From contig NZ_RZNF01000002.1 of NCBI RefSeq assembly GCF_003992725.1, forward strand, positions 1-64,000: a stretch of 64,000 bases of DNA, written 5' to 3'. The number at the start of each line of letters is the position of its first letter. Positions within the stretch are counted from its first letter, which is position 1. The position numbers and the translations under genes are program-made. The notes under the pieces are model-generated. The model did not search any database. It worked only from the letters and a program-made list of their open reading frames with translations, and was not told the origin of the DNA. The DNA is from Rhodomicrobium lacus (GTDB taxonomy: Bacteria; Pseudomonadota; Alphaproteobacteria; Rhizobiales; Rhodomicrobiaceae). Of this stretch, positions 33,527 to 38,717 are shown one piece after another.

Positions 33527-34571
33527 GAGCGTTTCCTCACTTCACCGAATCGCGGGGGATTCCGTTTTTGTGCGAACAGTGATTCATGATGCTGGCCGGG
33601 CGGAGGCCGGCATCGATGACACGACCCCTTTCGAACGATCTTCGTGAGCGCGTTGTTGCGGCGGTTCTTCGCGGCGCAAGCTGCCGGGAGGCGGCGGCCC
33701 GCTTCGATGTCGCGGTTTCGAGTGTGGTGAAGCTGATGCAGCGCTATCGGGCGACCAGCTCGGTGGCGCCGGGCAAGATGGGCGGACACCGCAAGCGCAT
33801 TCTCCTGCCGCATCGCGAGTTCATCGAGGAGCGGCTCAAACAGACCCCGCATCTCTCGCTGCACGCCTTGAAGGCAGAGCTTGCCGCGCGCGGGGTGTCT
33901 GTCTCGCACAACGCGGTGTGGGAGTTCCTGCGGCACGAGGGCTTGCGCTTCAAAAAAAGCGATGCTCGCCCTCGAACAGGCTCGCCCGGACGTCGCGCGG
34001 CGGCGCCGGCGCTGGAAGGCGCGGCAGGCAAGCCTTGATCCGGCGAAGCTCGTCTTCATCGACGAGACCTGGATCAAGACCAACATGGCTCCCCTGCGCG
34101 GCTGGGGGCCAAAGGGAAAGCGCCTGCGCGCCTATGCTCCGCACGGCCATTGGCGGACGCTGACATTCATCGGGGCGCTGCGGCTGGACCGGCTCACCGC
34201 GCCTTGCGTCTTCGACGGCCCGATCAACGGCGAGTGCTTCCGCGCCTATACCGAACAGCAATTGGTCCCGGTCCTCAAACCCGGCGACATCGTGGTCATG
34301 GATAATCTCGGCAGCCATAAGGGCAAGGCCGTGCGGATGGCGATCCGCAAGGCCGGGGCGAGGTTCCTGTTCCTGCCTCCCTATTCCCCTGACCTTAATC
34401 CGATCGAGCAAGCCTTCGCCAAGATCAAACACTGGATGCGATGCGCCCGGAAGCGAACCATCGAGGACGTCTGCGCCCAGATCGGCGCCCTCGTCGAAAC
34501 AATCGTCCCCACCGAGTGCAAAAGCTACTTCGAGAACGATGGATACGGTTCTGTCAAAACATGAAACGCTC
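33527..34571 (+). mobile_element. Complete IS630-family insertion sequence, 1045 bp
   Basis: The element is bounded by imperfect terminal inverted repeats beginning GAGCGTTTC on the left and ending GAAACGCTC on the right, and by a duplicated TA on each side (33525-33526 and 34572-34573). The uninterrupted sequence is known from copy A, which confirms the TA target. It carries one transposase in two overlapping frames. Ends, target duplication and gene all look intact, so the insertion is probably recent. Confidence 0.93.
33586..34564 (+). CDS. IS630-family transposase, two frames (orfA/orfB)
   Basis: The first frame runs to 34038 and encodes the HTH part ([39 protein letters not shown] and a second helical region). 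The second frame, readable from about 33881, encodes the catalytic DDE domain ([48 protein letters not shown]). The frames meet at a run of seven As at 33952-33958, where skipping one base gives ...[10 protein letters not shown]. Several IS630-group elements make a fused transposase by slippage, so this is likely programmed rather than a defect, but a mutation is possible. All three acidic residues are present. Confidence 0.85.
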
Positions 34572-34876: not shown

Positions 34877-35218
34877 GCCGGTTCGAGGTCTTCTCTCTTA
34901 TCGAAGACATGCATGTCGCATCCCTTCATGCGCGCTTCGTCCTCCCATTCCATGTGCCGTGAGCCCGTTATAGGGTCAGATACCCCGCCGAAACGCTGCG
35001 CATACCGAGGTGGCGTGTCTGCCATCTGCGCGCGCTCATCCTGCGGCGTGCAGAAGCGTGATCTGCGCGAAAAATCCGGCCTGTTGTGCGTCGTCCGCGT
35101 CGATCCGAAGGAGAGTAAGCGCCTGTGAAACGGCCCGCTAGTGGGTCCGCTTTCACACATCTTGCCATCACTTTCTACGAGGGGATGAGCCTTTTCGCGA
35201 GGGTCTGTTCCCGGCGGG
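34877..35218. other. Gene-poor stretch before the CTAG array
   Basis: About 340 bp follow the repeat. A minus-strand frame (MADTPPRYAQRFGGVSDPITG, HMEWEDEARMKGCDMHVFDKREDL) is readable and has the look of a plasmid-gene fragment, but I cannot identify it or find a start signal. Otherwise I see nothing. Confidence 0.35.
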
Positions 35219-35295
35219 AAAATATGCTAGAAAGGTGCTAGACGTTTTCTAGCACTTTGCGACGCTTTTGTTCTAGCACCTTTCTAGCATATTTT
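35219..35295. repeat. Perfect 24-bp inverted repeat within the CTAG array
   Basis: The left arm 35219-35242 begins AAAATATGCTAGAAAGG and continues GTGCTAGA. The right arm 35272-35295 is its exact reverse complement. The 29-base spacer contains a further CTAG. Each arm holds two CTAG sites 11 bases apart. A stem this long could extrude as a cruciform or simply present paired binding sites. Confidence 0.85.
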
Positions 35296-35309
35296 GGATC
35301 CGGGAGATC

Positions 35310-35338
35310 GTTCCTTCTAGCAATATGCTAGATGGAAC
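35310..35338. repeat. Second dyad in the CTAG array
   Basis: GTTCCTTCTAGCA and TGCTAGATGGAAC pair with one mismatch across a 3-base spacer, placing two CTAG sites 11 bases apart in opposite orientation, like the arms of the larger repeat. Confidence 0.75.
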
Positions 35339-35499
35339 GGCCTCCGACCTACTAGAATGAAGTTGGCGAAAGGTGCTAGAAAAGGCAGCGAACTTCGATC
35401 CCAGAATGCCACCTGGAAATACGGTCGACCATCGGCGCAATCCGTCAGCGAAGACGGACTCCATCGGGACCGGCAGATTTGCGAATGCGATCTTGAGTT

Positions 35500-35903
35500 G
35501 TGATCGGTCCCCATGATCTGGTCCTCTCGGAGTTGCGCCGGCCGGAAAGGGCAAACGCCGGCCTCACGGCATGGGCCGCCAGCGCTCCGCACGAGGAGCT
35601 GTTCATCTCCGCGATCACCCTTTTCGAGATCGAGCTTGGCGTTGCCCAGGCCGAACGCAAGGATGTGCCGAGGGGAGCGGTGCTGCGCGCCTGGGTCGAT
35701 GCGCAGGTGATCCCCGGCTTTCAGAGCCGGATCGTTCCCGTCGCCGCCGTCGCCCGGCGCTGCATGTGCCCGATCCGCGTCCGCAGCGCGACAGCCTGAT
35801 TGCGGCGACCGCGCTCGTTCACCGCCTGATCGTAGTCACGCGCGACGTCCGCGACTTCGAGCCGATGGGCGTTCCGCTGCTCAACCCCTGGACCGATGGA
35901 TGA
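35500..35903 (+). pseudogene. PIN-domain toxin VapC remnant
   Basis: The first frame gives LVLSELRRPERANAGLTAWAAS and ELFISAITLFEIELGVAQAERKD, as in VapC/FitB ribonucleases. After a frame change near 35750-35770 the second frame gives ALHVPDPRPQRDSLIAATALVHRLIVVTRDVRDFEPMGVPLLNPW, the C-terminal half. The N-terminal DTN motif with the first catalytic aspartate is missing. No VapB antitoxin gene precedes it. It is therefore a dead toxin left from a plasmid-type stability module. Confidence 0.8.
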
Positions 35904-35946: not shown

Positions 35947-36228
35947 CTAATCACTCACGGCCTCATCGCCGTCGAGCGAGGCCCGGAAGCTCCGCTCGAC
36001 CCACTCGACGACGGAGATCCCCTCTACTTCGGCAGCCCTTGCCACGGCTTCTTTCAAATCCTGGGCGATGCGCACGTTGAACTGGGCCTGCGGACCCTTC
36101 GGCCTGGCCTCGCCCGCGCGCCGGATGAGCCGGCCGCTTGCTCTCGGAGTCTGCCGTTTCCCTGTCCCGAAGCCCTTGTCGAGCGCGATCCGCATCGCGT
36201 CGCTCATGGTGCGCCCGCTTTCGCTCAT
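35947..36228 (-). CDS. Ribbon-helix-helix partner of ParA (ParB-like)
   Basis: The 93-residue protein has a basic, disordered N-terminal half (KGFGTGKRQTPRASGRLIRRAGEARPKG) followed by an RHH domain (QAQFNVRIAQDLKEAVARAAEVEGISVVEWVERSFRASL). Small RHH proteins encoded after a short ParA act as centromere-binding proteins in type Ib partition systems, and their N-terminal tail stimulates the ParA ATPase. The start overlaps the parA stop as ATGA and has GGAGG six bases upstream. Its likely DNA target is the CTAG array less than 600 bp downstream and the TTTGCTAGCA sites near the parA promoter. Confidence 0.72.
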   Translation of the reverse strand: MSESGRTMSDAMRIALDKGFGTGKRQTPRASGRLIRRAGEARPKGPQAQFNVRIAQDLKEAVARAAEVEGISVVEWVERSFRASLDGDEAVSD

Positions 36229-36854
36229 TCCACGCCTCCCCGGGCTCCTGCAAGCTCCTTCACCTCGCGCCACAGCGCGGCCATCTCGGCTTGCGCCTTC
36301 GCATTCAGCTCGGGCCCGGTCTTGCCGTGGATCGGCGCTTCCATGAAGCAGCGGTCGAACATGATCTTCGTCTTGAAAACCGTTCCGAACGCCGACAGCG
36401 CCGCCTCGGTCTGCTGTGCGAGATCATCGACGCTCTTGTGATAGCCGACTATGACGAAGCCGAACGGCTTCCCATGCTCGCGGCACAGATCGGACACCTG
36501 CCGTGCTCCCATCGCGTCGAAGAAACTCGTCCGCGTCGGGATCACCACCGCATCGGCGATTTTGATCGCCTCTTCGATGAGAGCGAGGTCGTAGGGCGAG
36601 GTGTCGATGAAGATCCAGTCGAAGATCGCCGCATAGCGCTGCACGTCGTCGGCGAGTGCGCCCTCGCGGGACATGAGATAGGGAGCAGCCGGCTCGCCGC
36701 GCAGCGCCCACCACTGGCTCAAAGAGCCAAGCGTCTCGTCGAGATCGACGATGCCGATGCGGCGCGTTTCCTGCGTAGCAAGCACCGACAGTGCAGACAC
36801 GAGCGTGCTTTTGCCCACGCCTCCCTTCGTCGATGCGATCGTGATGGTCGTCAT
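36225..36854 (-). CDS. parA: ParA-type partition ATPase (short form)
   Basis: The 209-residue protein has the deviant Walker A motif ASTKGGVGKSTLVSAL, the A' segment RIGIVDLDETLGSLSQWW and Walker B FDWIFIDTSPYDLALI. It lacks the N-terminal DNA-binding extension of type Ia ParA, as in plasmid type Ib systems. I chose the ATG giving MTTITIAS because AAGGA precedes it; residues upstream (to 36971) are not family-like. It is co-transcribed with the RHH gene. Presence in a tRNA-integrated element suggests the excised circle is actively partitioned, or that partition stabilises the integrated state. Confidence 0.88.
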   Translation of the reverse strand: MTTITIASTKGGVGKSTLVSALSVLATQETRRIGIVDLDETLGSLSQWWALRGEPAAPYLMSREGALADDVQRYAAIFDWIFIDTSPYDLALIEEAIKIADAVVIPTRTSFFDAMGARQVSDLCREHGKPFGFVIVGYHKSVDDLAQQTEAALSAFGTVFKTKIMFDRCFMEAPIHGKTGPELNAKAQAEMAALWREVKELAGARGGVE

Positions 36855-36891: not shown

Positions 36892-36901
36892 TTTGCTAGC
36901 A
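36892..36901. promoter_or_regulatory. TTTGCTAGCA site upstream of parA
   Basis: This decamer containing the GCTAGC palindrome lies about 40 bp upstream of the parA start. The same decamer occurs inverted at 37101-37110. It resembles the CTAG-array units, so it is a candidate autoregulatory operator of the RHH protein. Confidence 0.5.
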
Positions 36902-37100
36902 GATTTGTTGCCTTCAGGCCAGCACGACGGCGCGCATGCGTAGGGCGCGCCATACGGGAGATCAGGTTCATTGCGGATCTTCGCGAGATACCGGCGGTGT
37001 TGCCGCCGTCAACGGCATCGCCGAAAAGTTATGCGCTAGACAAGAAAGTCCTTGGCGGAAGCGTTGCGAGCGATATAGTCTGAATACATAGCAGATAATG

Positions 37101-37110
37101 TGCTAGCAAA
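37101..37110. promoter_or_regulatory. TGCTAGCAAA site upstream of the HTH gene
   Basis: Inverted copy of the decamer near parA, 25 bp before the small HTH gene that starts at 37135. The two sites bracket the divergent promoters of the partition operon and the recombination genes, suggesting common control. Confidence 0.5.
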
Positions 37111-37134: not shown

Positions 37135-37413
37135 ATGTCCCGGATCGGCGATGTGGCGGTACCGCTGGCACTGCGAGCCAGCCAGGCCGCGGCAAAACTC
37201 GGCGTCAGCGAGAGCCAGTTGCGCAAATGGGTGACCGAAGGCAAGGTGCACAGACCCTACCGTTGCAGCAGGACCATCGTGCTGTTCGATGCGGCCAACC
37301 TCGCCGCCGACTGGGACCGCATGAAGGAAGAGGCCGAAGGCCTGTTTGGAGCCACTGAAGATGTCGCCTGCGGGGAAAAGGAAGGTAATCCATGGGACGC
37401 GGTTCTTCGCTGA
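37135..37413 (+). CDS. Small HTH protein, excisionase-like
   Basis: The 92-residue protein carries a MerR/AlpA-type helix-turn-helix near its N-terminus (LRASQAAAKLGVSESQLRKWVTEGKVHRPYR), followed by an acidic C-terminus. Its reading frame overlaps the start of the tyrosine recombinase gene by 22 bases, so the two are translationally linked. That pairing is typical of excisionases or directionality factors of integrative elements. It could alternatively be a repressor controlling the divergent parA operon. Confidence 0.65.
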   Translation: MSRIGDVAVPLALRASQAAAKLGVSESQLRKWVTEGKVHRPYRCSRTIVLFDAANLAADWDRMKEEAEGLFGATEDVACGEKEGNPWDAVLR

Positions 37414-38717
37414 TGCGGCGGCCTCCCAGATATTGCCATGGCTATATCGACTGCCGGGGCAAGCCGCGCTGGTATCTGAGACGCGCGGGGCACAAGCGCG
37501 TGCCTCTTCCGGGTCTGCCCTGGTCGCCGGAATTCATGGCGGCTTATGAGGTGGCCATGGCGGGCGAAAAAATCGAGCCCGGCAAGAGCAGGGTCAAGCC
37601 GGGAAGTGTCGCCGACGTCATCGTGCTTTATTATCAGACCGCCGCGTTCACGCGTCTATCCGACGCCACGCGTCAAACCTATCGCGGCATCCTCGAACGC
37701 TTCCGGGCGGACTACGGCGAACTCCCGGTGGCAAAGCTCGAAGAGCAGCATATCGGGGCGATCCTGGACAAGAAAGCGGCAACGCCGGCAGCCGCGAACA
37801 ATTTGCGGCGGATGCTGCGCGCCATCATGAAACTCGCGCGCAAACGCAAGATGATCTCGGTCAATCCGATGACCGAGATCGAACCGATCCGCTACAAGGT
37901 CAAGGGCTTCAAGGACTGGTCGGACGACGAAATCGAACTCTTTGCCGCCCGTTACCCGATGGGAACGCGCGAGCGGCTGGCTTTCGAACTGATGCTCTGT
38001 GCGGCGCCGCGCCGGAGCGATGTCGTGCGGCTCAAACGCTCGAACCTTTGCGGCGGCAGGCTCGTCTACCGGCAGAAGAAGACCGGCGCGGAAATCGACA
38101 TCCCGATTCTGCAGCAGCTCGCGGTGGCGATCGAGGCGATGCCTGTGCGCGAAGGGCAGGAACTGCTCATCGAAACGCAGTTCGGCAAGGCTTTCACGGA
38201 AACGGGCTTCTATAATTGGTTTACCGAGAAGGCCCGGATGGCAGGCGTTCCCAAGGGGCGGTCGCCGCACGGCCTGCGGAAAGCCTGCTGCCGCAGGCTT
38301 GCCGAAGCCGGATGCTCGCCGCACGAAATCATGTCGGTGAGCGGTCACGAGACGTTGAGGGAAGTGGAGCGCTACACGAAAGCCGCCAATCGCGCGTGGC
38401 TCGCCGACAGCGCGATCCTTGCCTTGGCGCGGAAGCGCGACGGCGCTTCGGAAAAACCGAACACACGATTGGCTAACAGGCTCGCAACCGTTAGCCAGAG
38501 TTCGACTTTAGGGCCTGATTTACTTAAGAAAAAAATGACGGATGGCGGAGGGGGTGGGATTCGAACCCACGGTACGGTTGCCCGCACGCCGGTTTTCAAG
38601 ACCGGTCTATTAAACCACTCTAGCACCCCTCCGCAGGCGCGGCTCGCTCGCCTTAACGTCTCGTGCGCCGACGCATGCCGAACGTCGAACGCGCCAGCCT
38701 TCAACGTCGATGGATAA
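37392..38717 (+). CDS. Tyrosine recombinase whose frame runs through tRNA-Ser
   Basis: This phage-type integrase of up to 441 residues has an SAM-like core-binding domain at about 70-160 (VADVIVLYYQTAAFTRLSDATRQTYRGILERF). The catalytic domain has APRRSDVVRLK (Arg I), HGLRKACCRRL (His-x-x-Arg) and SGHETLREVERYTKA (His and the nucleophile Tyr). The last roughly 60 residues (from about GGGGGIRTHGTVARTPVF) are the antisense translation of the tRNA-Ser gene and its flank, so the natural C-terminus must differ in the excised form. This places the element's att site at the 3' part of that tRNA. No second tRNA fragment is visible in the window, so the other end of the element lies beyond it. Confidence 0.88.
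   Translation: MGRGSSLMRRPPRYCHGYIDCRGKPRWYLRRAGHKRVPLPGLPWSPEFMAAYEVAMAGEKIEPGKSRVKPGSVADVIVLYYQTAAFTRLSDATRQTYRGILERFRADYGELPVAKLEEQHIGAILDKKAATPAAANNLRRMLRAIMKLARKRKMISVNPMTEIEPIRYKVKGFKDWSDDEIELFAARYPMGTRERLAFELMLCAAPRRSDVVRLKRSNLCGGRLVYRQKKTGAEIDIPILQQLAVAIEAMPVREGQELLIETQFGKAFTETGFYNWFTEKARMAGVPKGRSPHGLRKACCRRLAEAGCSPHEIMSVSGHETLREVERYTKAANRAWLADSAILALARKRDGASEKPNTRLANRLATVSQSSTLGPDLLKKKMTDGGGGGIRTHGTVARTPVFKTGLLNHSSTPPQARLARLNVSCADACRTSNAPAFNVDG
38543..38632 (-). tRNA. tRNA-Ser (anticodon TGA)
   Basis: Read on the minus strand the gene starts GGAGGGGTGCTAGAGTGG. It has the anticodon stem-loop GGTCTTGAAAACC (anticodon TGA), a long variable arm, the T-loop GTGGGTTCGAATCCCAC, an acceptor closing with CCCCTCC, G discriminator and an encoded CCA. 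Length, with the long variable arm, fits class II tRNA-Ser. It lies downstream of btuB in the same direction and abuts the integrase gene at its 3' end, so it is the integration target. Confidence 0.93.

What the first reader, a model, noticed from the sequence alone, without database searches (positions are those of the whole stretch)
35219..35380. Nine CTAG sites on near-helical spacing next to a ParA-RHH operon
CTAG is generally scarce in bacterial DNA, yet nine copies fall within 153 bp with steps of 11, 11, 24, 11, 33, 11, 24 and 24. This strongly suggests a protein-binding array on one DNA face. With a short ParA and an RHH protein encoded close by, it may be a new type Ib centromere for an integrative element.
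Basis: partly seen in the sequence, partly recalled or inferred. Interest (0 to 1): 0.82.

Follow-up and report, generated by a model that had tools for sequence, protein, structure and literature searches.

The report
ParA/RHH site array on mobile islands
A row of evenly spaced short DNA sites on a bacterial mobile island is probably where a small DNA-binding protein and its ParA partner take hold of the island to position it for inheritance or transfer, and the same row sits beside the same gene pair in related species.

Summary
Confirmed: nine CTAG sites at window 35227-35379 with the stated steps. The same kind of array lies beside every close parA-RHH orthologue whose flank is readable (4 of 4, the window included, in three Rhodomicrobium genomes). 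Between diverged copies the sites are almost invariant and the spacers are not. Corrections: the unit is an oriented TGCTAGAA; degenerate copies keep TAGA rather than CTAG; the lattice is about 11.3-11.4 bp, so the sites do not lie on one DNA face. The RHH beta strand is QFNVR; in Arc the equivalent QFNLR reads TAGA. ParA is closest to ParF of plasmid TP228. New: the host elements look like integrative and mobilizable elements (IMEs) in tRNA genes, with a MOBP relaxase. An invariant hairpin with a nick-like motif follows each array by 50-70 bp (5 of 5) and is nowhere else in five genomes. A fifth, partly decayed array has lost parA-RHH. Best reading: a type Ib-like segregation module (RHH binds the array, ParA moves the excised element), possibly coupled to transfer as in R388 stb or VirC1/VirC2. 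Binding and function are untested. New variant of a known kind.

The parts
35227..35379 (.). Array of nine oriented TGCTAGAA-type sites, the presumed RHH-binding (centromere-like) platform
   Evidence: arrays of relatives
35114..35174 (+). Putative oriT: hairpin followed by nick-like CATCTTG|C (35158-35165)
   Evidence: Its 23-mer occurs exactly once per array, 5 of 5 arrays, and nowhere else in 5 genomes at up to 3 mismatches; minimum folds -11.3 to -13.3 with DNA parameters. The MOBP consensus (C/T)ATCCTG(C/T) (PMC3772185 passages) differs from it at one base. Against: an exact consensus match lies just upstream of the relaxase start in 4 of 5 relaxase loci
35947..36228 (-). RHH protein, 93 aa; C-terminal ribbon-helix-helix with strand QFNVR, long N-terminal tail; start overlaps the parA stop
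   Evidence: Pfam HicB 24 bits, cut-off 21; Arc and ParG as best PDB sequence matches, weak, E 0.096 and 0.11; model with two confident C-terminal helices; weak Foldseek matches, best E 0.2, many of them RHH proteins such as Arc, CopG, AmrZ, TacA1
36225..36854 (-). Short ParA ATPase, 209 aa, deviant Walker A KGGVGKS, no N-terminal DNA-binding domain
   Evidence: TP228 ParA and ParF entries, E 2e-13 and 2.7e-13; Foldseek best: TP228 ParA, E 3.7e-12
36892..37108 (.). parA-xis intergenic region with three further sites (CTAG at 36896, 37036, 37103), presumed operators
   Evidence: Conserved in five loci: 14 of 15 positions keep CTAG, the fifteenth (L013) reads TTAGA
37135..37413 (+). MerR/excisionase-like small protein (Xis-like)
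   Evidence: PHROG excisionase family, E 4.4e-5
37392..38717 (+). Tyrosine integrase, 441 aa, runs across tRNA-Ser; 34% identical to the integrase of a tRNA-Glu element
38543..38632 (-). tRNA-Ser(TGA), presumed attachment site; 17 bp of its 3' end recur on contig C4, about 440 bp from the start of a MOBP relaxase gene
35500..35903 (+). Broken PIN/VapC-like remnant between array and RHH gene; not a working part
   Evidence: No Pfam hit in the window pieces; PIN 18 bits, under cut-off 23.6, in the L008 piece; frames shown

Best explanation
The array is the cis-acting site of the adjacent parA-rhh operon. The RHH protein, presumably a dimer that reads (G)CTAGA with an Arc-like QFNVR strand, coats the array at about 11 bp per dimer and also sits on three sites between parA and xis, so that it represses its own operon and probably influences excision. 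ParA (ParF-like) binds the RHH-array complex and positions the excised circular element over the nucleoid, so that both daughter cells keep it until it reintegrates: a type Ib-like segregation module on an IME. Because the array lies 50-70 bp from a putative oriT, the same complex may also hold the relaxosome or place the element for transfer. Shown: array, conservation, gene linkage, homologies, att repeats, relaxase, invariant oriT-like block. Inferred: binding, repression, partition, transfer coupling.
For: Array beside 4 of 4 readable close orthologues, the window included; a fifth copy is cut by a contig end. L007 against L012: CTAG 36/36, 8-mer cores 69/72, spacers 28/46; L007 against L013: 36/36, 69/72, 29/46. 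34 of 36 array sites read GCTAGA in one orientation. ATAGA sites in a gap and in the flank fall on the same steps. Same motif between parA and xis. ParA nearest ParF by profile and fold. RHH strand QFNVR matches Arc QFNLR, whose Gln9, Asn11 and Arg13 contact TAGA (PMC12645479 passages). Module kept across three tRNA genes with integrases of 34% identity between target types. Two cousins with other RHH strands carry other repeat words upstream of parA, GGACACC (L034) and CATAGG (L035), each reached by 0 of 60 simulations.
Against: No binding or segregation data. The main array lies downstream of the operon, 0.5-0.6 kb past the RHH stop, not upstream. RHH-to-ParG similarity is weak (E 0.11) and the RHH model is poor outside the C-terminal domain (mean pLDDT 68). 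An array without parA-RHH exists (7 CTAG). L012 against L013 is too close to separate sites from spacers (70/72 and 70/73). The nearby oriT-like block allows a transfer role without partition. Several cousins with an annotated RHH gene showed no convincing repeat array in the same scan (L067, L068, L069, L072).
Confidence: 0.6

Rival explanations
1. Transfer enhancer: ParA and RHH work like VirC1 and VirC2 (or R388 StbB and StbA). The array beside oriT is an overdrive-like site that loads or positions the relaxosome for mobilization; partition is not the main role.
For: Invariant oriT-like block 50-70 bp from every array, 5 of 5, including the orphan array that has lost parA-RHH. MOBP-type relaxase at the far end of the elements. 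R388 stbDRs are 9-bp repeats spaced by two nucleotides (11-bp period) next to the oriT region, with a ParA-like StbB (PMC3098194 passages). VirC1 is ParA-like and acts with VirC2 at the T-DNA border (PMC4949242 passages); VirC2 has an RHH fold (PMC5675868 passages).
Against: ParA is under the VirC1 cut-offs (Pfam 20.9 vs 24, NCBIfam 20.2 vs 313) while ParF is the top match. The own genome has no match to PF03135 (VirB4-type ATPase), though a helper could come from outside. The nick motif differs from the cited consensus at one base, and an exact consensus match lies just upstream of the relaxase start in 4 of 5 relaxase loci, which may be the true nick site.
Confidence: 0.23
2. The array is the operator of a PIN/VapC toxin-antitoxin unit now in decay.
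For: A PIN-like remnant reads away from the array in the window and in L008; RHH proteins are common antitoxins; HicB-like matches in Pfam and PHROGs.
Against: The remnant looks broken in the four loci and lies the other way round in L012 and L013 (read by eye), yet the array is intact in all four. The motif also sits between parA and xis.
Confidence: 0.04
3. The sites are integrase arm-type or Xis sites, or origin iterons, of the element rather than RHH sites.
For: Sites also lie between parA and xis; origin iterons often recur at helical steps (general knowledge).
Against: The array is about 3 kb from the tRNA end. It is kept with integrases of only 34% identity. I recognised no Rep gene by eye among the ORFs of the two elements with both ends (family models were not run on most of them). 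Binding by the Xis-like protein cannot be excluded.
Confidence: 0.08

Closest known systems
parFGH of plasmid TP228 (type Ib)
   Same: Short ParA nearest ParF; small RHH protein with long N-terminal tail; array of short boxes; sites upstream of the operon as well (PMC7308502 passages)
   Different: On tRNA-integrated elements; main array downstream of the operon and next to a putative oriT; 11-bp CTAGA units instead of tetramer boxes; Arc-like RHH strand
stbABC/stbDRs of plasmid R388
   Same: 11-bp period array in the oriT region; DNA-binding protein plus ParA-like ATPase; links stability and transfer (PMC3098194 passages)
   Different: StbA homology not tested here; the stbDRs are at the stb promoter; three genes; different relaxase class (recalled)
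VirC1/VirC2 and overdrive of Ti plasmids
   Same: ParA-like ATPase and RHH protein acting beside a nick site (passages)
   Different: ParA is under the VirC1 cut-offs; no transfer-channel gene recognised on the elements
Arc repressor of phage P22 and its operator
   Same: Same reading residues Q-x-N-x-R and TAGA box; dimer-to-dimer distance of about 11 bp is recalled
   Different: Arc is a repressor with two half-sites and, as far as I recall, no ParA partner
SXT/R391 srpMRC and SGI1 parS sites
   Same: Segregation functions of integrative elements in the excised state (passages)
   Different: srpMRC is parMRC-like and on ICEs; SGI1 uses a plasmid's ParAB. Here a mobilizable element carries its own ParA, DNA-binding protein and array

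Membership tests
Type Ib partition system | Short ParA with deviant Walker A and no N-terminal DNA-binding domain | tested here: met
   209 aa, KGG-GKS invariant in 7 sequences; TP228 ParF top by profile and fold; NCBIfam ParA_partition 102.6 bits, under its cut-off of 180
Type Ib partition system | Small unrelated DNA-binding protein (often RHH) encoded directly downstream of parA | tested here: met
   93-aa RHH-like protein overlapping the parA end; same in the four complete close loci
Type Ib partition system | Repeat-array centromere near the operon | tested here: inconclusive
   Array present and conserved, but downstream of the operon; only three sites lie upstream; binding unknown
Type Ib partition system | The RHH protein binds the array and ParA, and the cassette stabilises a replicon | not testable with these tools
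   Needs EMSA or footprint and a plasmid-loss assay
VirC1/VirC2-overdrive | ParA-like protein belongs to the VirC1 family | tested here: not met
   Pfam VirC1 20.9 vs cut-off 24; NCBIfam VirC1 20.2 vs 313
VirC1/VirC2-overdrive | Site beside a relaxase nick site | tested here: inconclusive
   Hairpin plus CATCTTG|C at 5 of 5 arrays; one mismatch to the cited consensus; competing exact match beside the relaxase gene; nicking not shown
Integrative and mobilizable element | Integrase and att repeats | tested here: met
   25-bp repeats 30,339 bp apart (G004) and 24-bp repeats 35,341 bp apart (G000 C7). For the window's own element only a 17-bp repeat on another contig
Integrative and mobilizable element | Relaxase but no transfer channel of its own | tested here: met
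   Relaxase of the C7 element over the NCBIfam MobP cut-off, 359 vs 250. PF03135: none in G000 or G003, three in G004, all outside its 30.3-kb element. Other channel genes not searched by model
R388 stb-type system | StbA-homologous DNA-binding protein | not tested
   Only period and oriT proximity were compared, from passages

The most novel reading that the evidence does not exclude
One RHH array beside oriT serves as both centromere and transfer-positioning site of an IME: ParA either spreads the excised circle over the nucleoid or delivers it to a conjugation channel, a compact vertical/horizontal switch built on an Arc-type TAGA code. A second element that has lost parA-RHH but keeps array, oriT-like block and a relaxase may be served in trans by its neighbour.
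Probability: 0.25. Interest if true: 0.82.

Novelty: new variant of a known kind. Interest (0 to 1): 0.62.

Why it matters
A 2024 paper states that Par systems in IMEs had not previously been identified (PMC10954446 passage). Here a mobilizable element family would carry its own ParA, DNA-binding protein and array, next to a putative oriT. If true, how an excised IME survives cell division, and whether segregation and transfer share one site, becomes directly testable in a small system with natural variants: three tRNA targets, two integrase types and one orphan array.

Tried and rejected
Chance or composition: rejected. PIN/VapC operator: rejected on broken remnants beside intact arrays (partly by eye). 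Integrase-owned sites: disfavoured. Single DNA face: not supported. Close viral relatives of the ParA: 9 pattern matches, none a relative. Public genome scan: 155 pattern matches, 7 relatives, of which 3 are the Rhodomicrobium and Hyphomicrobiales loci already seen and 4 are distant partial matches. Order search: 7 of 397 genomes with a match at E up to 1e-25. Class search: 116 of 385 genomes hold a ParA-like match at E up to 1e-20; of the 30 loci given I scanned 29 (L074, the own genome's second copy, left out). The top 6- and 7-letter repeat words contained CTAG in none of the 29; 5 of 29 (L079, L080, L087, L091, L094) had some other word reached by 0 of 40 simulations, not looked into; whether these loci have an RHH partner was not tested, so this set says little. 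In one search (16 loci: 8 plasmid, 5 distant genome, 3 close genome) words upstream of parA reached by 0 of 60 simulations appeared in L034, L035 and L066 (L066 has no RHH annotated next to parA). L070 has one downstream next to a RepA gene, probably its iterons. L073 had one inside its parA. L071 was marginal (0.03), L016 and L032 suggestive only (0.13, 0.12). L067, L068, L069, L072 and L030 had none convincing. A 27-mer search for the far att end failed; shorter exact words found it. Statements that this is not in print rest only, in an open-licence library. One search (Rhodomicrobium, genomic island, integrase) listed 2 papers and (integrative and mobilizable, ParA, ribbon-helix-helix, oriT) 2 reviews; none of these four was read. 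Papers: of 14 fetched I saw passages only, plus abstract and outline of PMC12421886; nothing was used from PMC9178275, PMC4175270, PMC4270457 or PMC8656257 beyond general background.

Full report
OBSERVATION. The window holds nine CTAG at 35227-35379 with exactly the stated steps. CTAG is depleted overall (44 against a shuffle mean of 93.9), and no simulation produced nine in 153 bp. In the whole genome CTAGN7CTAG occurs at 11 places: 4 in this array, 5 in one other array at C7:311122-311237, 2 alone.

NEIGHBOURS. From the array rightwards: a broken PIN-like remnant (35500-35903), the RHH gene (35947-36228, minus), parA (36225-36854, minus), an Xis-like gene (37135-37413, plus) and a tyrosine integrase (37392-38717, plus) that runs across tRNA-Ser (38543-38632).

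CONSERVATION. ParA has three copies in the own genome: this one, one 98% identical that is cut by a contig end on the RHH side, and one 86% identical. The genus search (5 genomes) found close orthologues in two more genomes (84%). All three further complete copies have a nine-CTAG array beyond the RHH gene, with steps 24,11,34 or 35,11,11,23,11,11. Between L007 and L012 the CTAG are 36 of 36 identical, the 8-mer cores 69 of 72, and the spacers (equal-length gaps only) 28 of 46; L007 against L013 gives 36/36, 69/72 and 29/46; L012 against L013 is too close to discriminate (70/72 and 70/73).

A FIFTH ARRAY. A pattern search of seven relatives found further pairs at G004 2669229 and 2669311. The locus has seven CTAG with steps 24,11,24,22,25,11, a decayed last site and no parA or RHH; an impB/mucB-type gene and insertion-sequence-like ORFs lie round it. 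A relaxase 88% identical to that of C7 lies about 34 kb away. This tells against a strict linkage of array and operon and fits either a decaying site or one served in trans. In G000, G001, G002, G003 and G004 the pattern occurs at 11, 4, 0, 7 and 9 places, of which 9, 0, 0, 5 and 7 are in arrays.

THE UNIT. Orienting the 36 sites of the four complete arrays gives AAnnTGCTAGAAnG; G precedes the core in 35 of 36 and A follows it in 35 of 36, the exceptions being two different sites, so 34 of 36 read GCTAGA. Sites were oriented by this very feature, so the orientation is descriptive. Scored with a matrix built without the locus tested, GTGATAG- or GCGATAG-type sites lie on the lattice inside and just before the L007, L012 and L013 arrays with scores of 5.5-10 (background is about 40 hits above 2 bits per 10 kb; the window array has no such extra site). 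Between parA and xis three sites are conserved in five loci; 14 of 15 keep CTAG and the fifteenth reads TTAGA. So TAGA is the better-kept core. Phase coherence is 0.92-0.97 at 11.29-11.40 bp but 0.16-0.30 at 10.5 bp.

WHO READS IT. The RHH profile aligns weakly with Arc (E 0.096) and ParG (E 0.11) in the PDB; its beta strand reads QFNVR against QFNLR in Arc. In Arc, Gln9, Asn11 and Arg13 contact the TAGA box (PMC12645479, passages). That adjacent Arc dimers sit about 11 bp apart is recalled. The AlphaFold model (mean pLDDT 68, confident only in the C-terminal domain) gave only weak matches (best E 0.2), many of them RHH proteins. ParA's best matches are the TP228 ParA and ParF entries by profile (2e-13 and 2.7e-13) and by fold (E 3.7e-12, TM 0.83, model pLDDT 80).

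THE ELEMENT. In G004, 25 bp of the tRNA-Glu end recur 30,339 bp away; in G000 C7, 24 bp recur 35,341 bp away. A relaxase gene lies just inside the far end of both; the C7 one passes the NCBIfam MobP cut-off, and the G004 one matches in three pieces. The window's contig starts inside its element. Its far end is probably on C4, where 17 bp of the tRNA-Ser 3' end lie about 440 bp from the start of a 91% identical relaxase gene; C3 likewise carries 24 bp of the other tRNA-Glu and an 82% identical relaxase. PF03135 (VirB4-type ATPase) was found in 2 of 4 genomes: none in G000 or G003, one in G002, three in G004, all outside its 30.3-kb element. I therefore call these IMEs. Integrases of the two target types are 34% identical, while ParA stays 83-97% identical over the close set.

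PUTATIVE oriT. Beyond each array an invariant block holds a hairpin and CATCTTG|CC (window 35114-35174). Its 23-mer occurs exactly once per array, 5 of 5, and nowhere else in five genomes at up to three mismatches; the strands fold at -11.3 to -13.3. The cited MOBP nick consensus is (C/T)ATCCTG(C/T) (PMC3772185 passages); this motif differs at one base. Against the assignment: an exact consensus match lies just upstream of the relaxase start in 4 of the 5 relaxase loci scanned (L049, L050, L064, L065; not L063), in what looks like coding sequence and without an evident hairpin (judged by eye); it could be the real nick site. If the hairpin block is the oriT, the array, rhh, parA and int would enter a recipient first (inference).

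MECHANISM. Most likely RHH dimers coat the array, repress parA and possibly act at xis, and ParA moves the complex so that the excised circle is inherited. Precedents for segregation of integrative elements are srpMRC of SXT/R391 and SGI1's use of a plasmid's Par system; the latter paper states that Par systems in IMEs had not been identified. Precedents for a site joined to transfer are R388 stbDRs, with the same 11-bp period beside oriT, VirC1/VirC2 and NAH7 Par proteins (abstract and passages). Sequence alone cannot separate partition from transfer; I put partition as main role at 0.6 and transfer as main role at 0.23, and the two may be joined.

COUSINS. Two more distant ParA-RHH loci carry other repeats upstream of parA, GGACACC (L034) and CATAGG (L035), each reached by 0 of 60 simulations. 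Four plasmid cousins with an annotated RHH or CopG gene (L067, L068, L069, L072) showed none convincing, so the rule is not general with this scan.

VERDICT. Real, conserved and very probably functional; a type Ib-like module in a new setting, not yet shown to be a centromere.

Noticed in passing
L106 9206-9326 (G004:C1:2669205-2669325): Orphan seven-CTAG array with the oriT-like block but no parA-RHH; an impB/mucB-type gene and IS-like ORFs lie round it
   Followed up: partly
L024 15205-18001 and L043: The 30.3-kb G004 element carries a reverse transcriptase (Pfam RVT_1) and ORFs that look like CRISPR-Cas genes next to a repeat-like tract (by eye; not tested by models)
   Followed up: no
window 3000-33100: Siderophore-like cargo: NRPS modules and a TonB-dependent receptor and ORFs resembling iron ABC transporters (by eye) between the contig start and the array
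   Followed up: partly
L024 13904-14737; L008 9555-10394: Zeta-toxin-like kinase near the array in tRNA-Glu elements (Pfam 84.6 bits for L024; the L008 copy by resemblance only)
   Followed up: no
window 33586-34564: Transposase in two overlapping frames left of the array (Pfam HTH and DDE_3 domains; IS630-like is recalled)
   Followed up: no
L049, L050, L064, L065, just upstream of the relaxase start: Conserved exact match to the MOBP nick consensus in coding-like sequence; a competing oriT candidate
   Followed up: no
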